A program made the translations under genes and the position numbers. The notes below the pieces were generated by a model. The model ran no database searches. It had not been told where the DNA came from and was given only the letters and a program-made list of their open reading frames with translations. From Prochlorococcus marinus XMU1408 (GTDB lineage Bacteria; Cyanobacteriota; Cyanobacteriia; PCC-6307; Cyanobiaceae), in contig NZ_QJUE01000004.1 of assembly GCF_003208055.1 (NCBI RefSeq), forward strand, positions 1 through 64,000: 64,000 bases of DNA, written 5' to 3'. Positions 17-5,767 of this stretch are shown here, piece by piece. Numbering within the stretch: position 1 is the stretch's first letter; every line of letters starts with the position of its first letter.

Positions 17-232
17 TCAAAAGATTCCAGGAATGATTTGACCAGTTGTGAAGTAAGAAACGAGAAGACTAAAAAAGCCAATCATCGCCCAACGACCATT
101 TGTCTTCTCTGCTTCTTCTGGGTAGCTTGTGTAATCCTCGACAAGCTGTGGCTGTGTTTCACGGCCAAAGATGTTTTGCTTGCCGTACTCAGTGATTACC
201 TGAGAAGAAGCTGCGTTAGAAGAGGTTGTCAT
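17..232 (-). CDS. hli: High-light-inducible protein (Hli/Scp family)
   Basis: This 71-aa protein belongs to the one-helix chlorophyll-binding family that protects photosystems and newly made chlorophyll in thylakoids under light stress. The family core is visible at residues 42-71: EKTNGRWAMIGFFSLLVSYF followed by TTGQIIPGIF, with the chlorophyll-ligand E..N.R pattern at the start of the single membrane helix. The N-terminal 40 residues are polar and probably stromal. The gene is complete, ending in TGA. It faces away from the microprotein genes at 515-796, so the space between them is a divergent promoter region. The family is very sure; the exact member is not resolved. Confidence 0.95.
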   Translation of the reverse strand: MTTSSNAASSQVITEYGKQNIFGRETQPQLVEDYTSYPEEAEKTNGRWAMIGFFSLLVSYFTTGQIIPGIF

Positions 233-421
233 TACTGGAATTGCGTTGATGCAAAAAACATAAAGTATTAGCTTTGTTAATCAAAGATTCGGTCCGGTAC
301 GGCTTCTTCTAATCCTTAATCGCTTTAAACATCAAACACCAAATACAGCAACTAGTTAGAGAGATATTTATCCAATGATTAGATCTATTGATGACTCTAA
401 TAAGTATAAATAGCCCGAACT

Positions 422-448
422 GGATAGCCCTACTTCAACCGTCCTACT
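422..448 (+). promoter_or_regulatory. Upstream element copy 1 (GGATAGCCCTAC type)
   Basis: The string GGATAGCCCTACTTCAACCG starts about 90 bases before the ATG of the 36-aa gene at 515. Close relatives occur on the minus strand at 1878-1904 and about 2846-2872; the latter lies at a similar distance before the paralogous 36-aa gene at 2643-2753. It may be a promoter-proximal site or part of a conserved 5' leader. Function is inferred only from position and repetition. Confidence 0.4.
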
Positions 449-514
449 ACTATTAAAAGCTTCTATTTATATTGTATTCATCTTTTTAAAACCAACTCAA
501 CCAAACTTTTAGTC

Positions 515-625
515 ATGCTTGCAATTAACAAAACTACTGCTGCAAAACTAATCGTTCTATGGAATCTTCCTGCACTTCTTTTATTAGTTGGTGCTTATGA
601 AGTTGGTACTACCGTATTTGCTTAA
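515..625 (+). CDS. 36-aa single-helix membrane microprotein (paralogue of 2643-2753)
   Basis: The protein begins MLAINKTTAAKLIVLWNLPA and ends in TTVFA. Residues 9-28 form one hydrophobic helix with a central PALLLL. It aligns without gaps over its full length with the 36-aa product at 2643-2753, with 16 identical residues and mostly conservative changes. That conservation supports a real gene despite its size. A 54-aa gene follows after 6 bases on the same strand, suggesting co-transcription. No family was recognised. Size and topology resemble small photosystem-associated subunits, but that is speculation. Confidence 0.65.
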   Translation: MLAINKTTAAKLIVLWNLPALLLLVGAYEVGTTVFA

Positions 626-631
626 CTCACA

Positions 632-796
632 ATGACATCATCTGATAACAGTCCAAAGAATTGGTCCGAGTGGAATAACACAAAGCATTTCACTGATTAT
701 TCAAGAGATTCTGGAACAGGCAAATTTGTTCGCTATACGATCGCTGCATTGCTTTTCGTTCCTATTGGTTTTCTTGCTTATATGACTACTATTTGA
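632..796 (+). CDS. 54-aa membrane microprotein
   Basis: The product starts MTSSDNSPKNWSEWNNTKHF and has one hydrophobic segment near its C-terminus (about residues 34-53). Its N-terminal 30 residues are polar and rich in Ser, Asn and Trp. It follows the 36-aa gene by 6 bases and is probably its operon partner. No family recognised. A weak hairpin (CTAGC/GCTAG, 856-871) lies downstream and could end the transcript. Confidence 0.6.
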   Translation: MTSSDNSPKNWSEWNNTKHFTDYSRDSGTGKFVRYTIAALLFVPIGFLAYMTTI

Positions 797-912
797 TAAC
801 TAATGATTTCAACGGACAATATTAGAAATAACAACAGAAAAGCAAATAGCTGCATCTAGCGTTAAAGCTAGTATCTAATAAAAAGCTCAAATAGAAAAAG
901 TTCTACTGGCAA

Positions 913-1119
913 TTAGGCTCTCGGATGTAAATCTGGGTACCTTGTCGTTTCATCTTTAACTCTGTTTGGATTTTCACGATCAGAGTTTCTAGCTGCGTTA
1001 AAAATCATTAGGAATGGAATAGCTATTGCAAAGAAATAAAAATGCAATAAAAGAAGGTCCCAAGGAACTCCTGAACTTCCATAGTCAGGAAAAAACAAGG
1101 CAGTCGATAACAGCATCAT
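913..1119 (-). CDS. Small membrane protein with FFPDYG..G.PWDL motif (paralogue of 11539-11784)
   Basis: The ORF can start at 1164, but the ATG at 1119 is preferred. An AAGG ribosome-binding site lies 11 bases before it, and conservation with the paralogue begins there. The 68-aa form has the motif FFPDYGSSGVPWDL, a hydrophobic helix (LLLHFYFFAIAIPFLMI), then AARN and a polar C-terminal tail with VKDET. The product at 11539-11784 carries the same layout. The family is not recognised; two copies in one accessory region point to a conserved role in this lineage. Confidence 0.6.
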   Translation of the reverse strand: MMLLSTALFFPDYGSSGVPWDLLLLHFYFFAIAIPFLMIFNAARNSDRENPNRVKDETTRYPDLHPRA

Positions 1120-1207
1120 ACGAAGGAACACCTTATTTTTATAGACTAAAAGGATTCTGAACAATTCGTGAGATATTTTGCTTTAACTGGAAGAATGGCT
1201 TAGATGT

Positions 1208-1321
1208 ATGTCTGGAAAAATAATAAATAACAGATATAGAAATTACTGCTGGAGTTGAAAAAAGATTGCCGGAATTTATGAAGTGAGTCCTACTACTGCC
1301 AGGCGTTGGTCTATTGATTAG
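1208..1321 (+). pseudogene. Decayed copy of the 37-codon HTH microprotein gene
   Basis: This stretch matches the intact gene at 4621-4734 codon for codon, from ATG to TAG over the same 38 codons with no indels. Codon 17 has changed from TGG (Trp) to TGA (stop). After the stop the frame still reads KKIAGIYEVSPTTARRWSID. It is therefore a point-mutated remnant, unless the stop is suppressed. Its 3' end overlaps the end of the minus-strand 32-aa ORF at 1318-1416. Confidence 0.6.
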
Positions 1322-1416
1322 TAACGAGCGTAAAGATCAAACAGAATCCCACCAATAAACTCACCTAGTCCGAACCATGATTTCTTCTTTGGTTGTGCTG
1401 GAGTAGATGTGGTCAT
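1318..1416 (-). CDS. 32-aa microprotein, coupled to the gene at 1416-1523
   Basis: The sequence begins MTTSTPAQPKKKSWFGLGEF and continues IGGILFDLYARY. It has a basic N-terminal half and a short amphipathic or hydrophobic C-terminal segment. Its ATG overlaps the stop of the upstream 35-aa gene (ATGTAATG), the arrangement of translationally coupled genes. No family recognised. Confidence 0.45.
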   Translation of the reverse strand: MTTSTPAQPKKKSWFGLGEFIGGILFDLYARY

Positions 1417-1523
1417 TACATACATTGGCGAAGTCTATTAACAAGGATTGTTGAAAAGCCAATAAACAACCCAGTGGGTATAGCCAAGCTTGCAATAATT
1501 GCTACTTCGTTGATTCCGTACAT
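1416..1523 (-). CDS. 35-aa membrane microprotein
   Basis: Read from the ATG at 1523 the protein is MYGINEVAIIASLAIPTGLF plus IGFSTILVNRLRQCM: one hydrophobic helix followed by a short basic tail. The open frame extends upstream to 1625, but that extension is extremely basic (MRRVLRKNTFHKRAIKQFLF...) and looks like non-coding sequence read through, so the short form is preferred. It resembles small photosystem or cytochrome subunits only in size. Its stop overlaps the start of the next gene. Confidence 0.45.
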   Translation of the reverse strand: MYGINEVAIIASLAIPTGLFIGFSTILVNRLRQCM

Positions 1524-1684
1524 AATTTTTAAGCGTTGGCGTTGGCTTTGCTTAGTCGTAGTTTTAAATAAAAATTGTTTAATGGCTCTTTTATGGAAAG
1601 TATTTTTCCGTAGAACTCTTCGCAATGTTGGAGTAACGGATTGAAAGGATTCATGTCCATTTTTTTAGTCCTAAACGATAACTG

Positions 1685-1880
1685 AAAAAGAGAACCCCCA
1701 CGTTGGAGGGTTGACTAATGGTTTTGATTACAAAAAAAGTGCAGACTTAATGAACTTTTAATGAATTAGCGAAGAGGGGACTGGGATTTCGACGACCGTC
1801 CCCCGATCTAGCTTGATGATGCTTCCGTATCACGCCATCAATATGGTCCTAATTTAAAAAGGATTTATTGAGTCCTGATG
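1685..1880 (-). ncRNA. Candidate small RNA (unverified)
   Basis: On the minus strand, the repeated element at 1878-1904 is followed by about 170 bases without an ORF. This stretch includes a 6-bp GGGGAC/GTCCCC helix with a 16-base loop. It ends in a 7-bp hairpin (1693-1712) followed by a T-run on that strand (1683-1692). A promoter-like repeat, a structured body and an intrinsic terminator suggest a short non-coding transcript. The 5' end is a guess and no known RNA family was recognised. Confidence 0.35.
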
Positions 1881-1904
1881 TTCGGTTTAGGTAGGGCTAT
1901 CCAA
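1878..1904 (-). promoter_or_regulatory. Upstream element copy 3 (GGATAGCCCTAC type)
   Basis: Read on the minus strand it is GGATAGCCCTACCTAAACCG followed by AACATCA. It shares the 12-mer GGATAGCCCTAC with the copy at 422 and the AACCGAACATCA end with the copy at 2846-2872. No ORF follows directly; the candidate small RNA does. Confidence 0.35.
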
Positions 1905-2002
1905 TCTTTTCTTGTTTTCTAACTTGATTTCGCCTATATATTTAATTGAGGCCAAACCTCATCAAGACATAATTGACTTTATATAGTACGAGTCGATTAA
2001 TA

Positions 2003-2043
2003 ACCCCTTTAGTTATTGGAATTTCTAGAGGGGTTTCTTGTTT
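2003..2043 (+). terminator. Intrinsic terminator
   Basis: AACCCCT pairs with AGGGGTT across a loop of about 20 bases, followed by a T-rich run (TTTCTTGTTTT). No clear plus-strand gene precedes it, so it may end a non-coding transcript. Confidence 0.5.
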
Positions 2044-2070
2044 TAACCTGTTTTTACTTGATCCATAAAA

Positions 2071-2106
2071 CTTGGGGCCAATGCCCCCAAGTAAATCGAC
2101 TGTCAA
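2071..2106 (-). terminator. Terminator cassette, copy 1
   Basis: CTTGGGGGCATTGGCCCCAAG followed by TTTTAT on the minus strand lies just downstream of the 50-aa gene at 2108-2260. The hairpin and the adjoining TTGACAGTCGATTTA are nearly identical to 5160-5196, downstream of another minus-strand gene. Confidence 0.6.
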
Positions 2107-2107
2107 G

Positions 2108-2260
2108 CTAGTAAGTGTTTAAGTCGAATTTTGCTTCAGTAGCCTTAACTGGAATTAGATTATTTGCTAAAGAATCATCTCCTGAGGAGGCTTGAAAAAT
2201 AACTCCAGCCCCACCTATCAATAAAACTGCGAACATGATTGCGTGATATGCAGTAAACAT
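2108..2260 (-). CDS. 50-aa membrane microprotein
   Basis: The product MFTAYHAIMFAVLLIGGAGV... has one N-terminal hydrophobic helix (about residues 6-24) and a polar C-terminal tail ending KFDLNTY. It lies downstream of the 36/44/43-aa genes on the same strand and just before the terminator cassette at 2071-2106, so it may be the last gene of that unit. No family recognised. Confidence 0.5.
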   Translation of the reverse strand: MFTAYHAIMFAVLLIGGAGVIFQASSGDDSLANNLIPVKATEAKFDLNTY

Positions 2261-2339
2261 TTTCTAAAACCTATACTTATGAAAATCTAATCAGATGAGA
2301 TATCGCAGTGATGTAGTACAAAGCGAATGTTTCTGGGGT

Positions 2340-2369
2340 GTTTCTGCTACTACTGCTTGGCGGTGATCA
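2340..2369 (+). pseudogene. 3' remnant of the HTH microprotein gene
   Basis: GTTTCTGCTACTACTGCTTG and the bases after it match the VSPTTARRWS coding end of the intact gene at 4621-4734, but now read V-S-A-T-T-A-W-R-stop. Only about 30 bases are alignable. It lies just beyond the end of the minus-strand 43-aa gene. Confidence 0.4.
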
Positions 2370-2381
2370 ATGGCTTAAAAA

Positions 2382-2513
2382 TTAGAGTTTCACCAAGTAA
2401 GAAATAAACCAAACGGCAAATATAATTTTTCCCAAAATAAGAAAAGGAACAAACTTAAAAGCCTTCTTTTCGAATGCTGCTTTATCAAATGCTTGTTTAT
2501 CAGTTGAAGTCAT
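2382..2513 (-). CDS. 43-aa membrane microprotein
   Basis: The product starts MTSTDKQAFDKAAFEKKAFK and then has one hydrophobic helix (FVPFLILGKIIFAVWFISYL). The amphipathic charged N-terminus followed by a single transmembrane segment resembles many thylakoid microproteins. Its ATG lies inside the end of the 44-aa gene (14-base overlap, different frame), so the two are probably translationally coupled. No family recognised. Confidence 0.55.
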   Translation of the reverse strand: MTSTDKQAFDKAAFEKKAFKFVPFLILGKIIFAVWFISYLVKL

Positions 2514-2634
2514 GAGAAAGAAGCAACTGAATTTCTAGCGGGGTTAAATCACTATTTTCTATTCCCCAAAGCTCACCTTTGTCTGAAGCTTCAAGGATAG
2601 ATTCGTAAAAATCAGGTGAGAATTTTGAAGGCAT
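2500..2634 (-). CDS. 44-aa soluble microprotein
   Basis: MPSKFSPDFYESILEASDKG... is acidic, has no membrane segment and ends LLLSHDFN. It lies 8 bases downstream of the 36-aa gene at 2643-2753 and overlaps the start of the 43-aa gene. Such tight packing suggests a single mRNA for three microproteins. No family recognised. Confidence 0.5.
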   Translation of the reverse strand: MPSKFSPDFYESILEASDKGELWGIENSDLTPLEIQLLLSHDFN

Positions 2635-2642
2635 TGTTCTAA

Positions 2643-2753
2643 TTAAACGATTACGGAAGAAGCAACATCAAATGAACCTGATGCAAGTAGTAGCGCAGGG
2701 ATACAAAAAAGAACTAGGAATTTAGCTGCTGAAGAATTATTGATTGAAGTCAT
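2643..2753 (-). CDS. 36-aa membrane microprotein (paralogue of 515-625)
   Basis: MTSINNSSAAKFLVLFCIPA then LLLASGSFDVASSVIV. It aligns end to end with the 36-aa product at 515-625; AAK, VL, PALLL, G and V positions are shared. There is one hydrophobic helix at about residues 10-27. It heads a tight minus-strand cluster with the 44-aa and 43-aa genes. A copy of the repeated upstream element lies about 90 bases before its ATG, as for its paralogue. Confidence 0.6.
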   Translation of the reverse strand: MTSINNSSAAKFLVLFCIPALLLASGSFDVASSVIV

Positions 2754-2845
2754 GGCAGGGAGGGGTTAAAAATTTTCGGTGATACAGGTATTGAACATTC
2801 CATGCACCGATGTAATAAATATAAAAAGTACTCTTGAAGTAATGA

Positions 2846-2872
2846 TGTTCGGTTGGGGTAGTGCTTCCCTAC
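2846..2872 (-). promoter_or_regulatory. Upstream element copy 2
   Basis: On the minus strand: GGAAGCACTACCCCAACCGA followed by ACATCA. It resembles copies at 422-448 and 1878-1904 and is placed about 93 bases before the 36-aa gene start at 2753. AT-rich sequence that could hold a -10 box follows it in both 36-aa loci. Confidence 0.35.
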
Positions 2873-2997
2873 TCCCATCCAAAAAAAAGAAGGATTAGAC
2901 CAAAGGTGTAAGAAAAGAGGCTTTATGAAACTCTTTACTCCCTTCACCATCCCCAAAAAAGACAACTGCGATCTTTGCAGAATTAAAAGGAATAATC

Positions 2998-3026
2998 AAA
3001 AGAGAGGCTATTTGCCTCTCTTTTTT
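2998..3026. terminator. Bidirectional terminator
   Basis: AAAAGAGAGGC pairs with GCCTCTCTTTT across a TATTT loop and has a T-run on both strands. On the minus strand it directly follows the stop of the DUF3104-like gene at 3025. Confidence 0.75.
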
Positions 3027-3306
3027 ACAACTGCTTTATTTCCTCGTAAAGCGAAGAAGGCTTTTTAATTGTTGTTCGATATTCGCAAACTATTTCAGTA
3101 ACTTCTTCCCCATGAATCCAACGGATTTCGCCAGAATCTACGTTGGCAATTTGAAAGAGTGAGGGTGCATCAGGATCACGAGAGCCGCCAGCAAAAGAAA
3201 GAACTTTTCCAATTTGGTCCTTTTCATATAAAACAGCGTCCCCAGGTCTGACTTTTAAAAATAAAGGTTCATCCATAAGTTCATTCTGTCCAAATCCATC
3301 AAGCAA
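3025..3306 (-). CDS. DUF3104-like small protein
   Basis: The product is 93 aa; the N-terminal 10 residues may not be translated, since MDEPLFLKVRPGDAV is an equally good beginning. The core LKVRPGDAVLYEK, then VLSFAGGSRDPDAPSLFQIA and VDSGEIRWIHGEEVTEIV, matches my memory of the picocyanobacterial DUF3104 family, which is soluble, of about 70 aa and of unknown function. It stands alone on the minus strand and ends at a strong terminator. Function unknown. Confidence 0.65.
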   Translation of the reverse strand: MLDGFGQNELMDEPLFLKVRPGDAVLYEKDQIGKVLSFAGGSRDPDAPSLFQIANVDSGEIRWIHGEEVTEIVCEYRTTIKKPSSLYEEIKQL

Positions 3307-3383
3307 GGGAAGTATCCTTTTAGACCAAATTTCTAAGTCTGTTAAGTCAAGTAGTTTCAGACAGTATTTGCCTAAGAAATAAG

Positions 3384-3446
3384 GTTTCTCCTACTACTGC
3401 TAGGCGGTGGTCAGTTCAGTAATAAGCCGATATTCTGCCAATGATC
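3384..3446 (+). pseudogene. 3' remnant of the HTH microprotein gene / direct repeat left copy
   Basis: Bases 3384-3422 read VSPTTARRWSVQ-stop, the end of the intact 37-aa product at 4621-4734. Bases 3393-3446 match 4705-4758 at 52 of 54 positions, including non-coding sequence after the stop. Just upstream, TTGCCTAAGAAATAAG resembles the start of the gene, suggesting an internal deletion. The repeat lies directly left of the porin gene. Confidence 0.55.
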
Positions 3447-3532
3447 GAGCAACTGTCTTATGTAGCTATTAATACTTCAGATTGTCTGTTTTTTTACAAG
3501 AATAATTTAAATTTATTTTGTGTGAGGACACA

Positions 3533-4543
3533 ATGAAGCTTTTTCAGCGTTTGCTGGTAGCTCCTGCTGCTCTAGGCCTTATGGCTCCAATAGCCGCTAA
3601 TGCAGATACTGCATTTTCATCAACTACATCTCTTGGTGGAAGTGCTTTTTTTACTGTTGGTTCTGTTGCTGACGGTGGAACAACAGATACGGAAGAAGAA
3701 CTTTATATGCAATACAAGTATGTACTTAGCATGAAATCTAGCTTTAGCGGCGAAGACTTGCTTGTTACTGGTATTAAAGCTGGTAACGCATCTGGTCCAT
3801 TAGCATCTATGGACAGCGCTTACGGTGGTGGTTCTGATCTTACTGTTAAAGATCTTTTTTACTCTTTCCCAGTTGGCGATCTTTCAGTAACTGCTGGACC
3901 GTTACTTGATCAGGATGATGTTGTTGCTGCAACAACTTCTGCTTATTCAGACGCTTTCAGACTAGGCAGCATGCCTTACTCATTGGCTGGTAACGAAACT
4001 GGTCCTGGAGTTGGTGTTACTTACTCTGGAGACAATGGCGTAGTTGCCTCTGTAAGTTTCGTTTCTGTTGGTGGTGCTTCTTCTACAGTAGGAATCGGCG
4101 CTGATGATGGTGATGATGTTTCAACTTTCACTCTTGGCTATAACGGCGACGGCTTTGGTGGCGGTCTTGTAATCGCTTCAAACGACGGTGAAGGTGGAAC
4201 AACTGGATACGACACATTCGGTGGCGGTATCTACTACAGCCCTGAGTCAATCCCAGCTACTATCAGCGTTGCTTATGACACAAATGATCCAGAAACAGGT
4301 GCTGATGCAACTGATTTGTTCGTTGGTGTTGACTATGAAGTTGGTCCAGGAACATTAAGTGCTGCTTACAATTCAACTGATGTTGATGGCAGTGATTCTG
4401 AAGACTCAACAGGATTTGAAGTTTCTTACACTTATTCATTGAACGACAACGTTACACTTACTCCTGGTTTCTTCACCGTTGAAGATACAAGTACTGGTGA
4501 TGACGACACAGGTGTTGTTGTTGAAACAGTTTTTAGCTTCTAA
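3533..4543 (+). CDS. Outer-membrane porin-like protein
   Basis: The ATG at 3533 is chosen because GAGGA lies 4 bases before it and a classical signal peptide follows: MKLFQRLLVAPAALGLMAPI, cleaved after AANA. The mature part of about 310 residues is rich in Gly, Ser, Thr, Asp and Val, with alternating short strands and acidic turns. It ends in VVVETVFSF, a C-terminal Phe typical of beta-barrel outer-membrane proteins. It resembles the Prochlorococcus porin group but I see no N-terminal SLH domain as in Som porins. It probably forms a channel for small solutes; the substrate is unknown. It is flanked by 54-bp direct repeats and ends at a clear terminator. Confidence 0.8.
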   Translation: MKLFQRLLVAPAALGLMAPIAANADTAFSSTTSLGGSAFFTVGSVADGGTTDTEEELYMQYKYVLSMKSSFSGEDLLVTGIKAGNASGPLASMDSAYGGGSDLTVKDLFYSFPVGDLSVTAGPLLDQDDVVAATTSAYSDAFRLGSMPYSLAGNETGPGVGVTYSGDNGVVASVSFVSVGGASSTVGIGADDGDDVSTFTLGYNGDGFGGGLVIASNDGEGGTTGYDTFGGGIYYSPESIPATISVAYDTNDPETGADATDLFVGVDYEVGPGTLSAAYNSTDVDGSDSEDSTGFEVSYTYSLNDNVTLTPGFFTVEDTSTGDDDTGVVVETVFSF

Positions 4544-4586
4544 ACCTTAAAAGCTAAATCAATCCCTTCGGATGGGTCATTGAATA

Positions 4587-4615
4587 AAAGGGCTGGCAAA
4601 AGTCAGTCCTTTTTC
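4587..4615 (+). terminator. Porin gene terminator
   Basis: AAAGGGCTG pairs with CAGTCCTTT (one G-T pair) across an 8-base loop, followed by a T-run. It lies 44 bases after the porin stop codon. Confidence 0.75.
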
Positions 4616-4620
4616 ATGTG

Positions 4621-4734
4621 ATGCCTAAAAGAAACAGAATTAACAGATATAGAAGTTACGGCTGGAGTTGGAAAAAGATTGCTGGAATTTATGGGGTAAG
4701 TCCAACTACTGCTAGGCGGTGGTCAGTTCAGTAG
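4621..4734 (+). CDS. 37-aa helix-turn-helix microprotein
   Basis: The protein is MPKRNRINRYRSYGWSWKKI plus AGIYGVSPTTARRWSVQ. Residues 15-35 fit a helix-turn-helix: helix (WSWKKIAGIYG), turn (VS), recognition helix (PTTARRWS). This is the pattern of Mu/resolvase and terminase-type DNA-binding domains, with a basic N-terminal arm. There is no other domain, so it would be a stand-alone DNA-binding peptide. It starts only 6 bases after the porin terminator. Three decayed copies lie upstream (1208, 2340, 3384), so it belongs to a small repeated element. Whether it is expressed is unknown. Confidence 0.5.
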   Translation: MPKRNRINRYRSYGWSWKKIAGIYGVSPTTARRWSVQ

Positions 4735-4758
4735 AAAGCCGATATTCTGCCAATGATC
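4705..4758 (+). repeat. Direct repeat, right copy (left copy 3393-3446)
   Basis: Fifty-two of 54 bases match 3393-3446. The repeat spans the last codons of the HTH microprotein and 24 bases of downstream sequence ending CCAATGATC. The two copies bracket the porin locus with a 1,312-base period. Confidence 0.8.
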
Positions 4759-4771
4759 TTTAAAAACCCAA

Positions 4772-5152
4772 ATGAAGAAAACTGCGATTGTAGGTGTTGT
4801 TGCAGCGGCCATAGGGCTTGCTATAGGTTCTCAACTTCCTAAATCTGGTACTGCGGGATATGCCGTAATTACAGGAACCACAAAAGATAGAGAAGCAGCT
4901 AAAGAGTATTTTCAAAACGTTAATCAATTCACTAAAGAATGTGGTTTTACAACATTGGTATTAGATAGAAATACAGATATACGAGAAGGAAATAAGAGAG
5001 GAGATGGTGGTCCTCTAACTGTTATTGCAAGACATCCAAAAGGTAAGGATGCAGTAATTAAATGCTACGAATCTGATGAATATCAAAGGCTAAAAGCAAT
5101 TCGAGCACCTCATACAAATTGGAATTTCCGACTAACAGAAGGAAAGCTATAA
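4772..5152 (+). CDS. DUF1330-type protein with N-terminal membrane anchor
   Basis: This 126-aa product begins with a Lys-Lys followed by a hydrophobic segment (about residues 4-21, TAIVGVVAAAIGLAIGSQ) that anchors or exports it. The remainder (GYAVITGTTKDREAAKEYFQ... TVIARHPKGKDAVIKCYESD...YQRLKAIR) follows the DUF1330 dimeric alpha/beta-barrel pattern. That family is small and generally without known activity. It is convergent with another DUF1330-type gene at 5230-5526, and the terminator hairpin 5160-5175 separates them. Confidence 0.65.
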   Translation: MKKTAIVGVVAAAIGLAIGSQLPKSGTAGYAVITGTTKDREAAKEYFQNVNQFTKECGFTTLVLDRNTDIREGNKRGDGGPLTVIARHPKGKDAVIKCYESDEYQRLKAIRAPHTNWNFRLTEGKL

Positions 5153-5159
5153 ATAAAAA

Positions 5160-5196
5160 GGGGGCTAATGCCCCCAAGATAAATCGACTGTCAACC
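5160..5196 (-). terminator. Terminator cassette, copy 2
   Basis: On the minus strand GGGGGC/GCCCCC with an ATTA loop is followed by TTTTTATTTATAG, a good intrinsic terminator for the gene at 5230-5526. The hairpin and the adjoining TTGACAGTCGATTTAT repeat the cassette at 2071-2106. Confidence 0.65.
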
Positions 5197-5229
5197 GAGC
5201 TTTAACTATATAAGAACCTCAACTTTTTC

Positions 5230-5693: not shown

Positions 5694-5767
5694 TCGGGGC
5701 GACAGGATTCGAACCTGCGACCTAGTGCTCCCAAAGCACCCGCGCTACCAAGCTGCGCCACGCCCCG
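5694..5767 (-). tRNA. tRNA-Pro (anticodon TGG)
   Basis: The minus strand gives a full cloverleaf. The 7-bp acceptor stem is CGGGGCG/CGCCCCG with discriminator A, the D arm contains AGC...TTGGTAGC, the anticodon loop is TTTGGGA with anticodon TGG, and the T arm contains GGTTCGAATCC. CCA is not encoded. This tRNA sits in the middle of the accessory region. tRNA genes often border islands in this genus, but I found no duplicated 3' fragment nearby. Confidence 0.95.

What the first reader, a model, noticed from the sequence alone, without database searches (positions are those of the whole stretch)
1208..4734. Repeated HTH microprotein element: one intact and three decayed copies
A 37-codon gene (4621-4734) encoding little more than a helix-turn-helix is accompanied by a full-length copy with Trp17 changed to a TGA stop (1208-1321) and two 3' remnants (2340-2369, 3384-3422). 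Repeated gain and decay inside 3.5 kb suggests a small mobile or selfish element, or a rapidly turning-over regulator of this island. Sequence similarity is direct; mobility and function are inference.
Basis: partly seen in the sequence, partly recalled or inferred. Interest (0 to 1): 0.6.

Follow-up and report, generated by a model that had tools for sequence, protein, structure and literature searches.

The report
Broken membrane-anchored DNA-binding gene in islands
The four similar pieces are old, broken copies of the DNA-binding end of a 63-residue membrane-anchored protein that travels with integrative elements sitting at a proline-tRNA gene in Prochlorococcus, and their shared sequence marks places where island genes have been swapped.

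Summary
The four copies are real, but none is intact. Relatives encode a 63-aa protein: one membrane helix plus a three-helix HTH, often behind a covarying RNA hairpin. The window's 37-codon ORF keeps only the HTH and starts just behind a terminator-like hairpin; it is a 5'-truncated relic like the other three.

Full-length relatives are under purifying selection (median dN/dS 0.20). Whole or partial copies occur in 39 of 41 genomes of the genus. Of 33 listed copies in six complete genomes, 29 lie within 50 kb of tRNA-Pro or its fragments (2.6 expected). Of 38 near-full copies, 16 have a divergent tyrosine-recombinase homologue within 5 kb. One sits in a capsid-encoding satellite contig. The gene thus belongs to tRNA-Pro integrative elements of tycheposon type; formal membership could not be tested.

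Fetched copies within one genome are at most 89% identical, which argues against recent self-transposition. Left and right flanks reassort; in one complete relative a mosaic HTH copy joins the left flank of copy 1208 to the right flank of copy 4621. So the copies mark island-shuffling junctions. The protein's function, probably membrane-tethered regulation of the element, is inferred.

The parts
4621..4734 (+). 37-codon ORF: HTH half only of the 63-aa membrane-helix + HTH gene; 5'-truncated relic
   Evidence: matches profile positions 26-63 only
1208..1321 (+). HTH-half copy with TGA at codon 17; left flank (cluster U0) shared with 12 other fetched copies
2336..2375 (+). 3' remnant with the 22-nt core; left flank (cluster U3) shared with six other fetched loci from four genomes
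3379..3446 (+). 3' remnant plus 24 bp of right flank; 3389-3446 is a 58-bp direct repeat of 4701-4758
4701..4758 (+). partner of the 58-bp direct repeat that brackets the porin gene
4580..4616 (+). terminator-like hairpin (-17.2 kcal/mol, z -5.5) with a T-rich stem end, 4 nt before the 37-codon ORF
   Evidence: the consensus scan does not list it
3533..4543 (+). outer-membrane porin (Porin_4 above cut-off; SomB-type porin below cut-off); block 3451-4623 lies at another place in genome G056
4772..5152 (+). right-flank gene (126 aa) of flank cluster D7, found behind other copies in other genomes
5694..5767 (-). intact tRNA-Pro(TGG); its 3' fragments recur on the stretches that carry near-full copies in relatives

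Best explanation
The finding is a set of decayed C-terminal halves of a 63-aa gene belonging to integrative elements that insert at tRNA-Pro in Prochlorococcus and relatives (tycheposon-type islands). Shown by computation: the full gene encodes one hydrophobic helix (residues 2-26 of the model) followed by a three-helix HTH. In most near-full copies its homology begins at a hairpin whose pairs covary, with a TANNNT box at -12 to -7 in front of largely unrelated upstream sequences, so the first base is the predicted transcription start. Full copies are under purifying selection and often sit between a divergent, variable gene on the 5' side and, in many cases, a tyrosine recombinase and/or a tRNA-Pro fragment nearby. 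Left and right flanks reassort, and a mosaic copy shows exchange inside the HTH sequence. Inferred: the protein is held at the membrane with a cytoplasmic HTH and binds element DNA, most simply at its own leader, to regulate the element. Also inferred: successive elements arrive by integrase at tRNA-Pro, decay, and leave HTH pieces that serve as short homologies for deletion, insertion and cargo exchange. In this genome assembly no full copy and no element-type integrase was found.
For: Full-length relatives and model. Constraint: (pN/pS 0.29, median dN/dS 0.20 in 12 Prochlorococcus-type copies; 0.15 in 7 from other genera). Distribution: 39 of 41 genus genomes have whole or partial matches, 17 of 17 good ones; unbroken matches over at least 58 of 63 positions are listed in 13 genomes; 57 of 400 family genomes, 12 of 59 genera; 18 of the 20 matching genomes outside the genus have one match. 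Leader: (45 leaders, 90.2% of cells paired, 9 of 10 pairs with double changes, score 0.436 against at most 0.169 when slid; 0 of 500 shuffles reach the score, 1 of 500 the pair count). -10 box: (24 flanks; T at -12 in 19, A at -11 in 17, T at -7 in 20). Mobile context: L075 carries a capsid gene, a recombinase, a tRNA-Pro fragment and the gene; 16 of 38; 29 of 33. Shuffling. No sign of a recent burst.
Against: The paper that defines tycheposons is not held, so the island label rests on features and recall. The recombinases match Pfam Phage_integrase below its cut-off or not at all. 22 of 38 near-full copies have no recombinase homologue within 5 kb on the fetched stretch, often because contigs end, and some of the 16 are only fragments. 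About ten copies have a different leader instead of the hairpin (profile start near 46). Breakpoint enrichment at the window's four copies is significant for distinct ends (p 0.002) but not when all ends are counted (p 0.17); other positions also gather breakpoints. The within-genome test used fetched stretches, not whole genomes, and left out an identical inverted copy on one contig (L068) as a probable amplification artefact. DNA binding, membrane insertion and regulation are untested.
Confidence: 0.7

Rival explanations
1. A small self-mobile element (IS- or MITE-like): the HTH unit is itself the transposing piece and the window shows recent gain and decay.
For: Several copies per genome, sharp 5' edge, many truncated copies, weak HTH similarity to IS630 transposases.
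Against: Fetched within-genome copies at most 89.1% identical, median 79%; the nearest fetched relative is in another genome for 52 of 55 copies, although the pool of foreign copies is much larger. No catalytic domain. Two of the window's four left flanks recur in other genomes. The 5' edge coincides with a predicted transcription start. Not settled: one contig holds two identical inverted copies (L067/L068), set aside as a probable artefact.
Confidence: 0.06
2. The 37-aa protein is a functional small regulator of this island, kept in one copy while others decay.
For: Open frame; the HTH domain scores above Pfam's cut-off (27.0 against 24.6 bits).
Against: Truncated start, terminator-like hairpin 4 nt upstream, no promoter match listed near it by a simple scan that is itself weak, a residue invariant in 19 full-length proteins (T31) is Asn here, and the copy with the same right flank in L051 is full-length.
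Confidence: 0.08
3. The unit is only a passive repeat: any shared sequence in these islands recombines, and the gene's neighbourhood says nothing about its role.
For: Other positions, some of them other repeats, also coincide with breakpoints.
Against: dN/dS of 0.2 over the whole protein and a covarying leader shared across genera show selected function.
Confidence: 0.12
4. The leader edge is a dedicated cargo plug-in site, functionally like an integron's attachment site next to a divergent gene, so unrelated cargo genes are joined at a fixed spacing.
For: Start codons of at least nine unrelated divergent ORF families lie 4-11 nt from the edge; 28 of 42 leader copies have such an ORF of at least 40 aa against 2.8% of random positions in the same loci. 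A gene lies between the leader and a second gene in L055, L072 and L091 that is directly adjacent to the leader in others.
Against: No recombinase acting at that edge is identified; selection on overlapping divergent promoters could also hold the spacing; 14 of 42 lack such an ORF; a few of the ORFs are under 50 aa and may not be genes.
Confidence: 0.12

Closest known systems
Tycheposons of Prochlorococcus (Hackl et al. 2023, recalled; described second-hand in PMC10872708, passages read)
   Same: Tyrosine recombinase, islands at tRNA genes, variable cargo; capsid-bearing satellites among them (recalled)
   Different: The membrane-helix + HTH gene and its hairpin leader are not known to me as part of them; the defining paper could not be read
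Picocyanobacterial integrase islands at tRNA-Phe or tRNA-Cys (PMC10187409, a preprint, passages read)
   Same: Divergent tyrosine integrase that standard annotation misses, variable islands in Prochlorococcus and Synechococcus
   Different: Here the tRNA is Pro; whether the two integrase families are the same was not tested
Pfam PF13384 HTH_23 (homeodomain-like)
   Same: The HTH half matches; the 37-aa ORF is above the cut-off and the 63-aa form is at the cut-off
   Different: 63 aa in all, with an N-terminal membrane helix and no catalytic domain
Prochlorococcus repeat element PRE1 (recalled from Coleman et al. 2006)
   Same: Short repeat in genomic islands (recalled)
   Different: Sequence not available to me; identity untested

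Membership tests
63-aa membrane-helix + HTH gene family defined here | N-terminal membrane helix plus HTH in one frame | tested here: not met
   Listed own-genome matches cover only profile positions 26-63, 28-63, 33-62 and 34-62; a fifth, weaker match is not listed
63-aa membrane-helix + HTH gene family defined here | Homologous, co-linear HTH half including the 22-nt core | tested here: met
63-aa membrane-helix + HTH gene family defined here | Hairpin leader with -10 box | tested here: not met
   No window match to the leader part of the DNA profile; met in many but not all relatives
Tycheposon-type integrative element (as carrier) | Tyrosine recombinase beside the gene | tested here: met
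   In relatives: 16 of 38 copies within 5 kb, some only fragments; no element-type one found in the own genome
Tycheposon-type integrative element (as carrier) | Insertion at a tRNA gene with tRNA 3' fragments | tested here: met
   (fragments and co-location; integration itself not observed)
Tycheposon-type integrative element (as carrier) | Recombinase belongs to the tycheposon clade | not testable with these tools
   Reference sequences and paper not held
IS or MITE | Transposase, or near-identical copies in one genome | tested here: not met
   No catalytic domain; best within-genome identity 89.1% among fetched copies, one identical inverted copy on a contig (L068) left out as a probable artefact
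IS or MITE | Terminal inverted repeats and target-site duplications | not tested
   Only the 5' edges were inspected
Integron cassette site (attC) | RYYYAAC ... GTTRRRY arms and an intI gene | not tested
   Judged only by eye on the leaders, with the consensus recalled; no search run for the motif or intI

The most novel reading that the evidence does not exclude
The leader-plus-gene unit is the cargo-exchange module of these integrative elements. Its 5' edge, at its own transcription start, is where unrelated cargo genes are joined at a fixed 4-11 nt spacing, and its body is where integrase arms and cargo arms are recombined, with the membrane-held HTH protein acting on the hairpin DNA or RNA.
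Probability: 0.13. Interest if true: 0.8.

Novelty: new variant of a known kind. Interest (0 to 1): 0.52.

Why it matters
Prochlorococcus adapts largely through gene swapping in islands, yet how cargo is reassorted is poorly explained. A conserved small gene that often sits between recombinase and cargo, for which scans of Pfam, NCBIfam and PHROGs found no dedicated family and Rfam no match to its leader, and which marks exchange junctions, gives a handle on that question. It also gives a marker for decayed elements where the recombinase is gone, as in this window.

Tried and rejected
Rejected: a cyanophage gene (the 37-aa query has no phage hit better than E 0.8; the full-length profile found one IMG/VR contig); a known RNA family for the leader (window, eight loci); a recent transposition burst; PRE1 as an established identity (no text found).

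First attempts on the leader misled: a free stem search assigned wrong stems to many rows, and a fixed-anchor count had the outer stem shifted by one base (its inner-stem counts stand). They were replaced. The promoter scan found fewer promoter-like sites than shuffles do, so it carries little weight. PDB sequence and fold searches gave only generic HTH matches.

Rows dropped: one search used 20 chosen leaders of 51 (47 distinct after trimming); one search used 45 of those 47, leaving out one without the 5' half (L050) and one without the motif (L082). One search kept 24 of 52 flanks to remove related ones; two related pairs remain among the 24. One search used the 33 listed of 42 matches in six genomes, because the listing was cut. 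One search used 19 of the 20 ORFs picked by a pattern (L098, frame-shifted, left out); other full copies, such as that of L042, were not picked. One search compared 79 copies of at least 86 profile positions and left out L068 and loci of other genera. One search left out loci of other genera; its L090 line is garbled by merging of hits.
Full report
CHECK OF THE OBSERVATION. The ORF at 4621-4734 and the TGA-bearing copy at 1208-1321 read as described, and the 22-nt core is found at 1290, 2347, 3391 and 4703 with at most 2 mismatches, against none in 100 shuffles. The own genome has 6 matches to the 37-aa protein at E up to 10: three on the window's contig C4, two on contig C3 and a weak one on C2. 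Remnant 3391 continues past the stop codon: 3389-3446 and 4701-4758 form a 58-bp direct repeat that brackets the porin gene.

THE 'INTACT' COPY IS TRUNCATED. Many relatives run in frame upstream into a hydrophobic stretch of about 26 residues, giving a 63-aa protein such as MTSFTCVMAWLVALLMVPLMLFIWALDSKRTRINRYRSYGWTWRKISEIYGVSPTTARRWSMA. A model from 19 sequences (mean pLDDT 87, pTM 0.52) has helices 2-26, 29-38, 43-50 and 54-62. The listed own-genome matches cover only the HTH part, and none of the window's matches to the DNA profile reaches the leader. The genome is in 7 contigs, so a copy in a gap cannot be excluded. The 37-codon ORF begins 4 nt after a strong terminator-like hairpin at 4580-4616, which the consensus scan did not list. 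Residue T31, invariant in the 19 full-length proteins, is Asn in it.

DISTRIBUTION AND SELECTION. With a profile of full-length proteins, 39 of 41 genomes of the genus have whole or partial matches, including 17 of 17 that are at least 90% complete, with up to 10 matches each and many stops; unbroken matches over at least 58 of 63 positions are listed in 13 genomes. Of 35 named loci, 34 have Prochlorococcus in the record title. In a family-wide sample 57 of 400 genomes and 12 of 59 genera match; 18 of the 20 matching genomes outside the genus have a single match. Twelve full Prochlorococcus-type copies give pN/pS 0.29 and median dN/dS 0.20; seven from other genera give median dN/dS 0.15, with synonymous sites near saturation. 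Mean pS of 0.49 among the twelve shows that they are old.

LEADER AND EDGE. Homology of most near-full copies starts at GTCGAAG. About ten others (for example L043, L044, L045, L049, L051) have a different leader that also stands before the same divergent genes where the HTH gene is missing. On 45 of 47 distinct hairpin leaders a two-stem structure keeps 90.2% of cells paired, has double changes in 9 of 10 pairs and a covariation score of 0.436 against at most 0.169 for slid versions; 0 of 500 shuffles reach the score and 1 of 500 the pair count (a chosen set of 20 gives 97.0% and 0.589). G-U pairs on the HTH-sense strand are frequent in the inner stem, while A-C, the mark of G-U on the other strand, is rare there, which points to RNA of the HTH-sense strand. 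Over 24 upstream flanks the two most informative of 25 positions are T at -12 and T at -7, and A is common at -11: the shape of a -10 box, as recalled for bacterial promoters. So the first base of the element is a predicted transcription start. In 28 of 42 leader copies a divergent ATG-ORF of at least 40 aa starts 2-12 nt from the model edge, against 2.8% of random positions in the same loci. By blastp clustering, with signal-peptide genes counted as one, at least nine unrelated ORF families are involved.

CARRIER ELEMENTS. An IMG/VR contig (L075) holds a capsid-protease gene, an AAA-like protein (below Pfam's cut-off), a relative of the recombinases described here, a 3' fragment of tRNA-Pro and an intact copy of the gene. 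Recombinase homologues, some only fragments, lie within 5 kb of 16 of 38 near-full copies, in seven cases convergent on the 3' side at 262 to 2316 bp; 21 of the 38 copies have a tRNA-Pro match on their stretch, mostly the 3' part from nucleotide 29-31 to 74. In six single-contig genomes 29 of 33 listed copies lie within 50 kb of tRNA-Pro or a fragment, with 2.6 expected and 0 of 2000 random placements reaching this. The copies of the window lie 1.0-4.5 kb from an intact tRNA-Pro at 5694-5767. The recombinases match Pfam Phage_integrase below its cut-off or not at all and a XerC-like structure at E 3e-4 as a profile. The own genome has one distant recombinase of a kind found at similar E-value in many genomes of the genus, and no element-type one.

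SHUFFLING. Clustering of 300-bp flanks shows the same left flank with up to seven different right flanks and the same right flank with up to four different left flanks among leader-bearing copies. Relative to the window, complete genome G146 joins window 228-1311 directly to window 4638-5206 through one HTH copy that is 1208-type on its left and 4621-type on its right, switching near the core, while most of the block 1169-3380 lies elsewhere in its island. In G086 a left flank of the 1208 kind leads into the right flank of remnant 2336. The porin block 3451-4623 is at another place in G056. Distinct match ends near the four copies are 24 of 70 (circular-shift p 0.0021), but all ends give 46 of 180 (p 0.17), and other positions, some of them other repeats, also gather ends. 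Among fetched copies, those within one genome are at most 89.1% identical, and for 52 of 55 the nearest relative is in another genome; the foreign pool is much larger, and one identical inverted copy on a contig (L068) was left out as a probable amplification artefact.

READING. The gene is a selected component of tRNA-Pro integrative elements, and the window shows what is left after such elements decayed: HTH ends that act as short homologies at which island blocks were joined. That the protein binds its leader region at the membrane and regulates the element is the simplest functional proposal (about 0.3 by itself); it is not shown.

KNOWN WORK. PMC10872708 (passages read) describes tycheposons as large cargo-carrying elements with a tyrosine recombinase at one of seven tRNA genes. 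PMC10187409 (preprint, passages read) describes another picocyanobacterial integrase family at tRNA-Phe or tRNA-Cys. PMC2518516 (passages read) deals with non-coding RNAs in islands and PMC6102989 (passages read) with rearrangements at islands. None of the passages seen mentions this gene. Among the rows listed by searches (one listed none) no title or abstract start describes it; the lists are partial and the defining tycheposon paper is not held, so this is not proof of absence.

Noticed in passing
window 1948-2021: Yfr13 small RNA (RF02364), 64.7 bits, inside the shuffled island.
   Followed up: no
window about 2074-2110 and 5153-5216: A second repeat with a G-rich/C-rich hairpin and AAATCGACTGTCAA; match ends gather here too.
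   Followed up: partly
window about 1722-1913 and 2843-3001: A third repeat family shared between island blocks and genomes.
   Followed up: no
L043, L049, L051, L074, L095 upstream regions: A different shared 5' leader (TTTTGTCAGAAGAGCCTGAAGAGATGGCC and variants) precedes DUF3764, ABM and an unnamed gene family; in some genomes (e.g. the ABM gene of L043 at 1277) it stands without the HTH gene.
   Followed up: partly
L055, L072, L091: An extra 97-aa gene lies between the leader and a membrane-protein-like gene that is directly adjacent to the leader in other genomes.
   Followed up: partly
L079 (G184:C21), L067/L068 (G296:C23): Contigs with matching inverted copies at both ends, probably a single-cell amplification artefact.
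   Followed up: no
L066 (NZIO01000063): A contig labelled Pelagibacter MAG carries the element; probably misbinned Prochlorococcus DNA.
   Followed up: no
L042:2463-2525: Glutamine-II riboswitch about 2 kb from a near-full copy.
   Followed up: no
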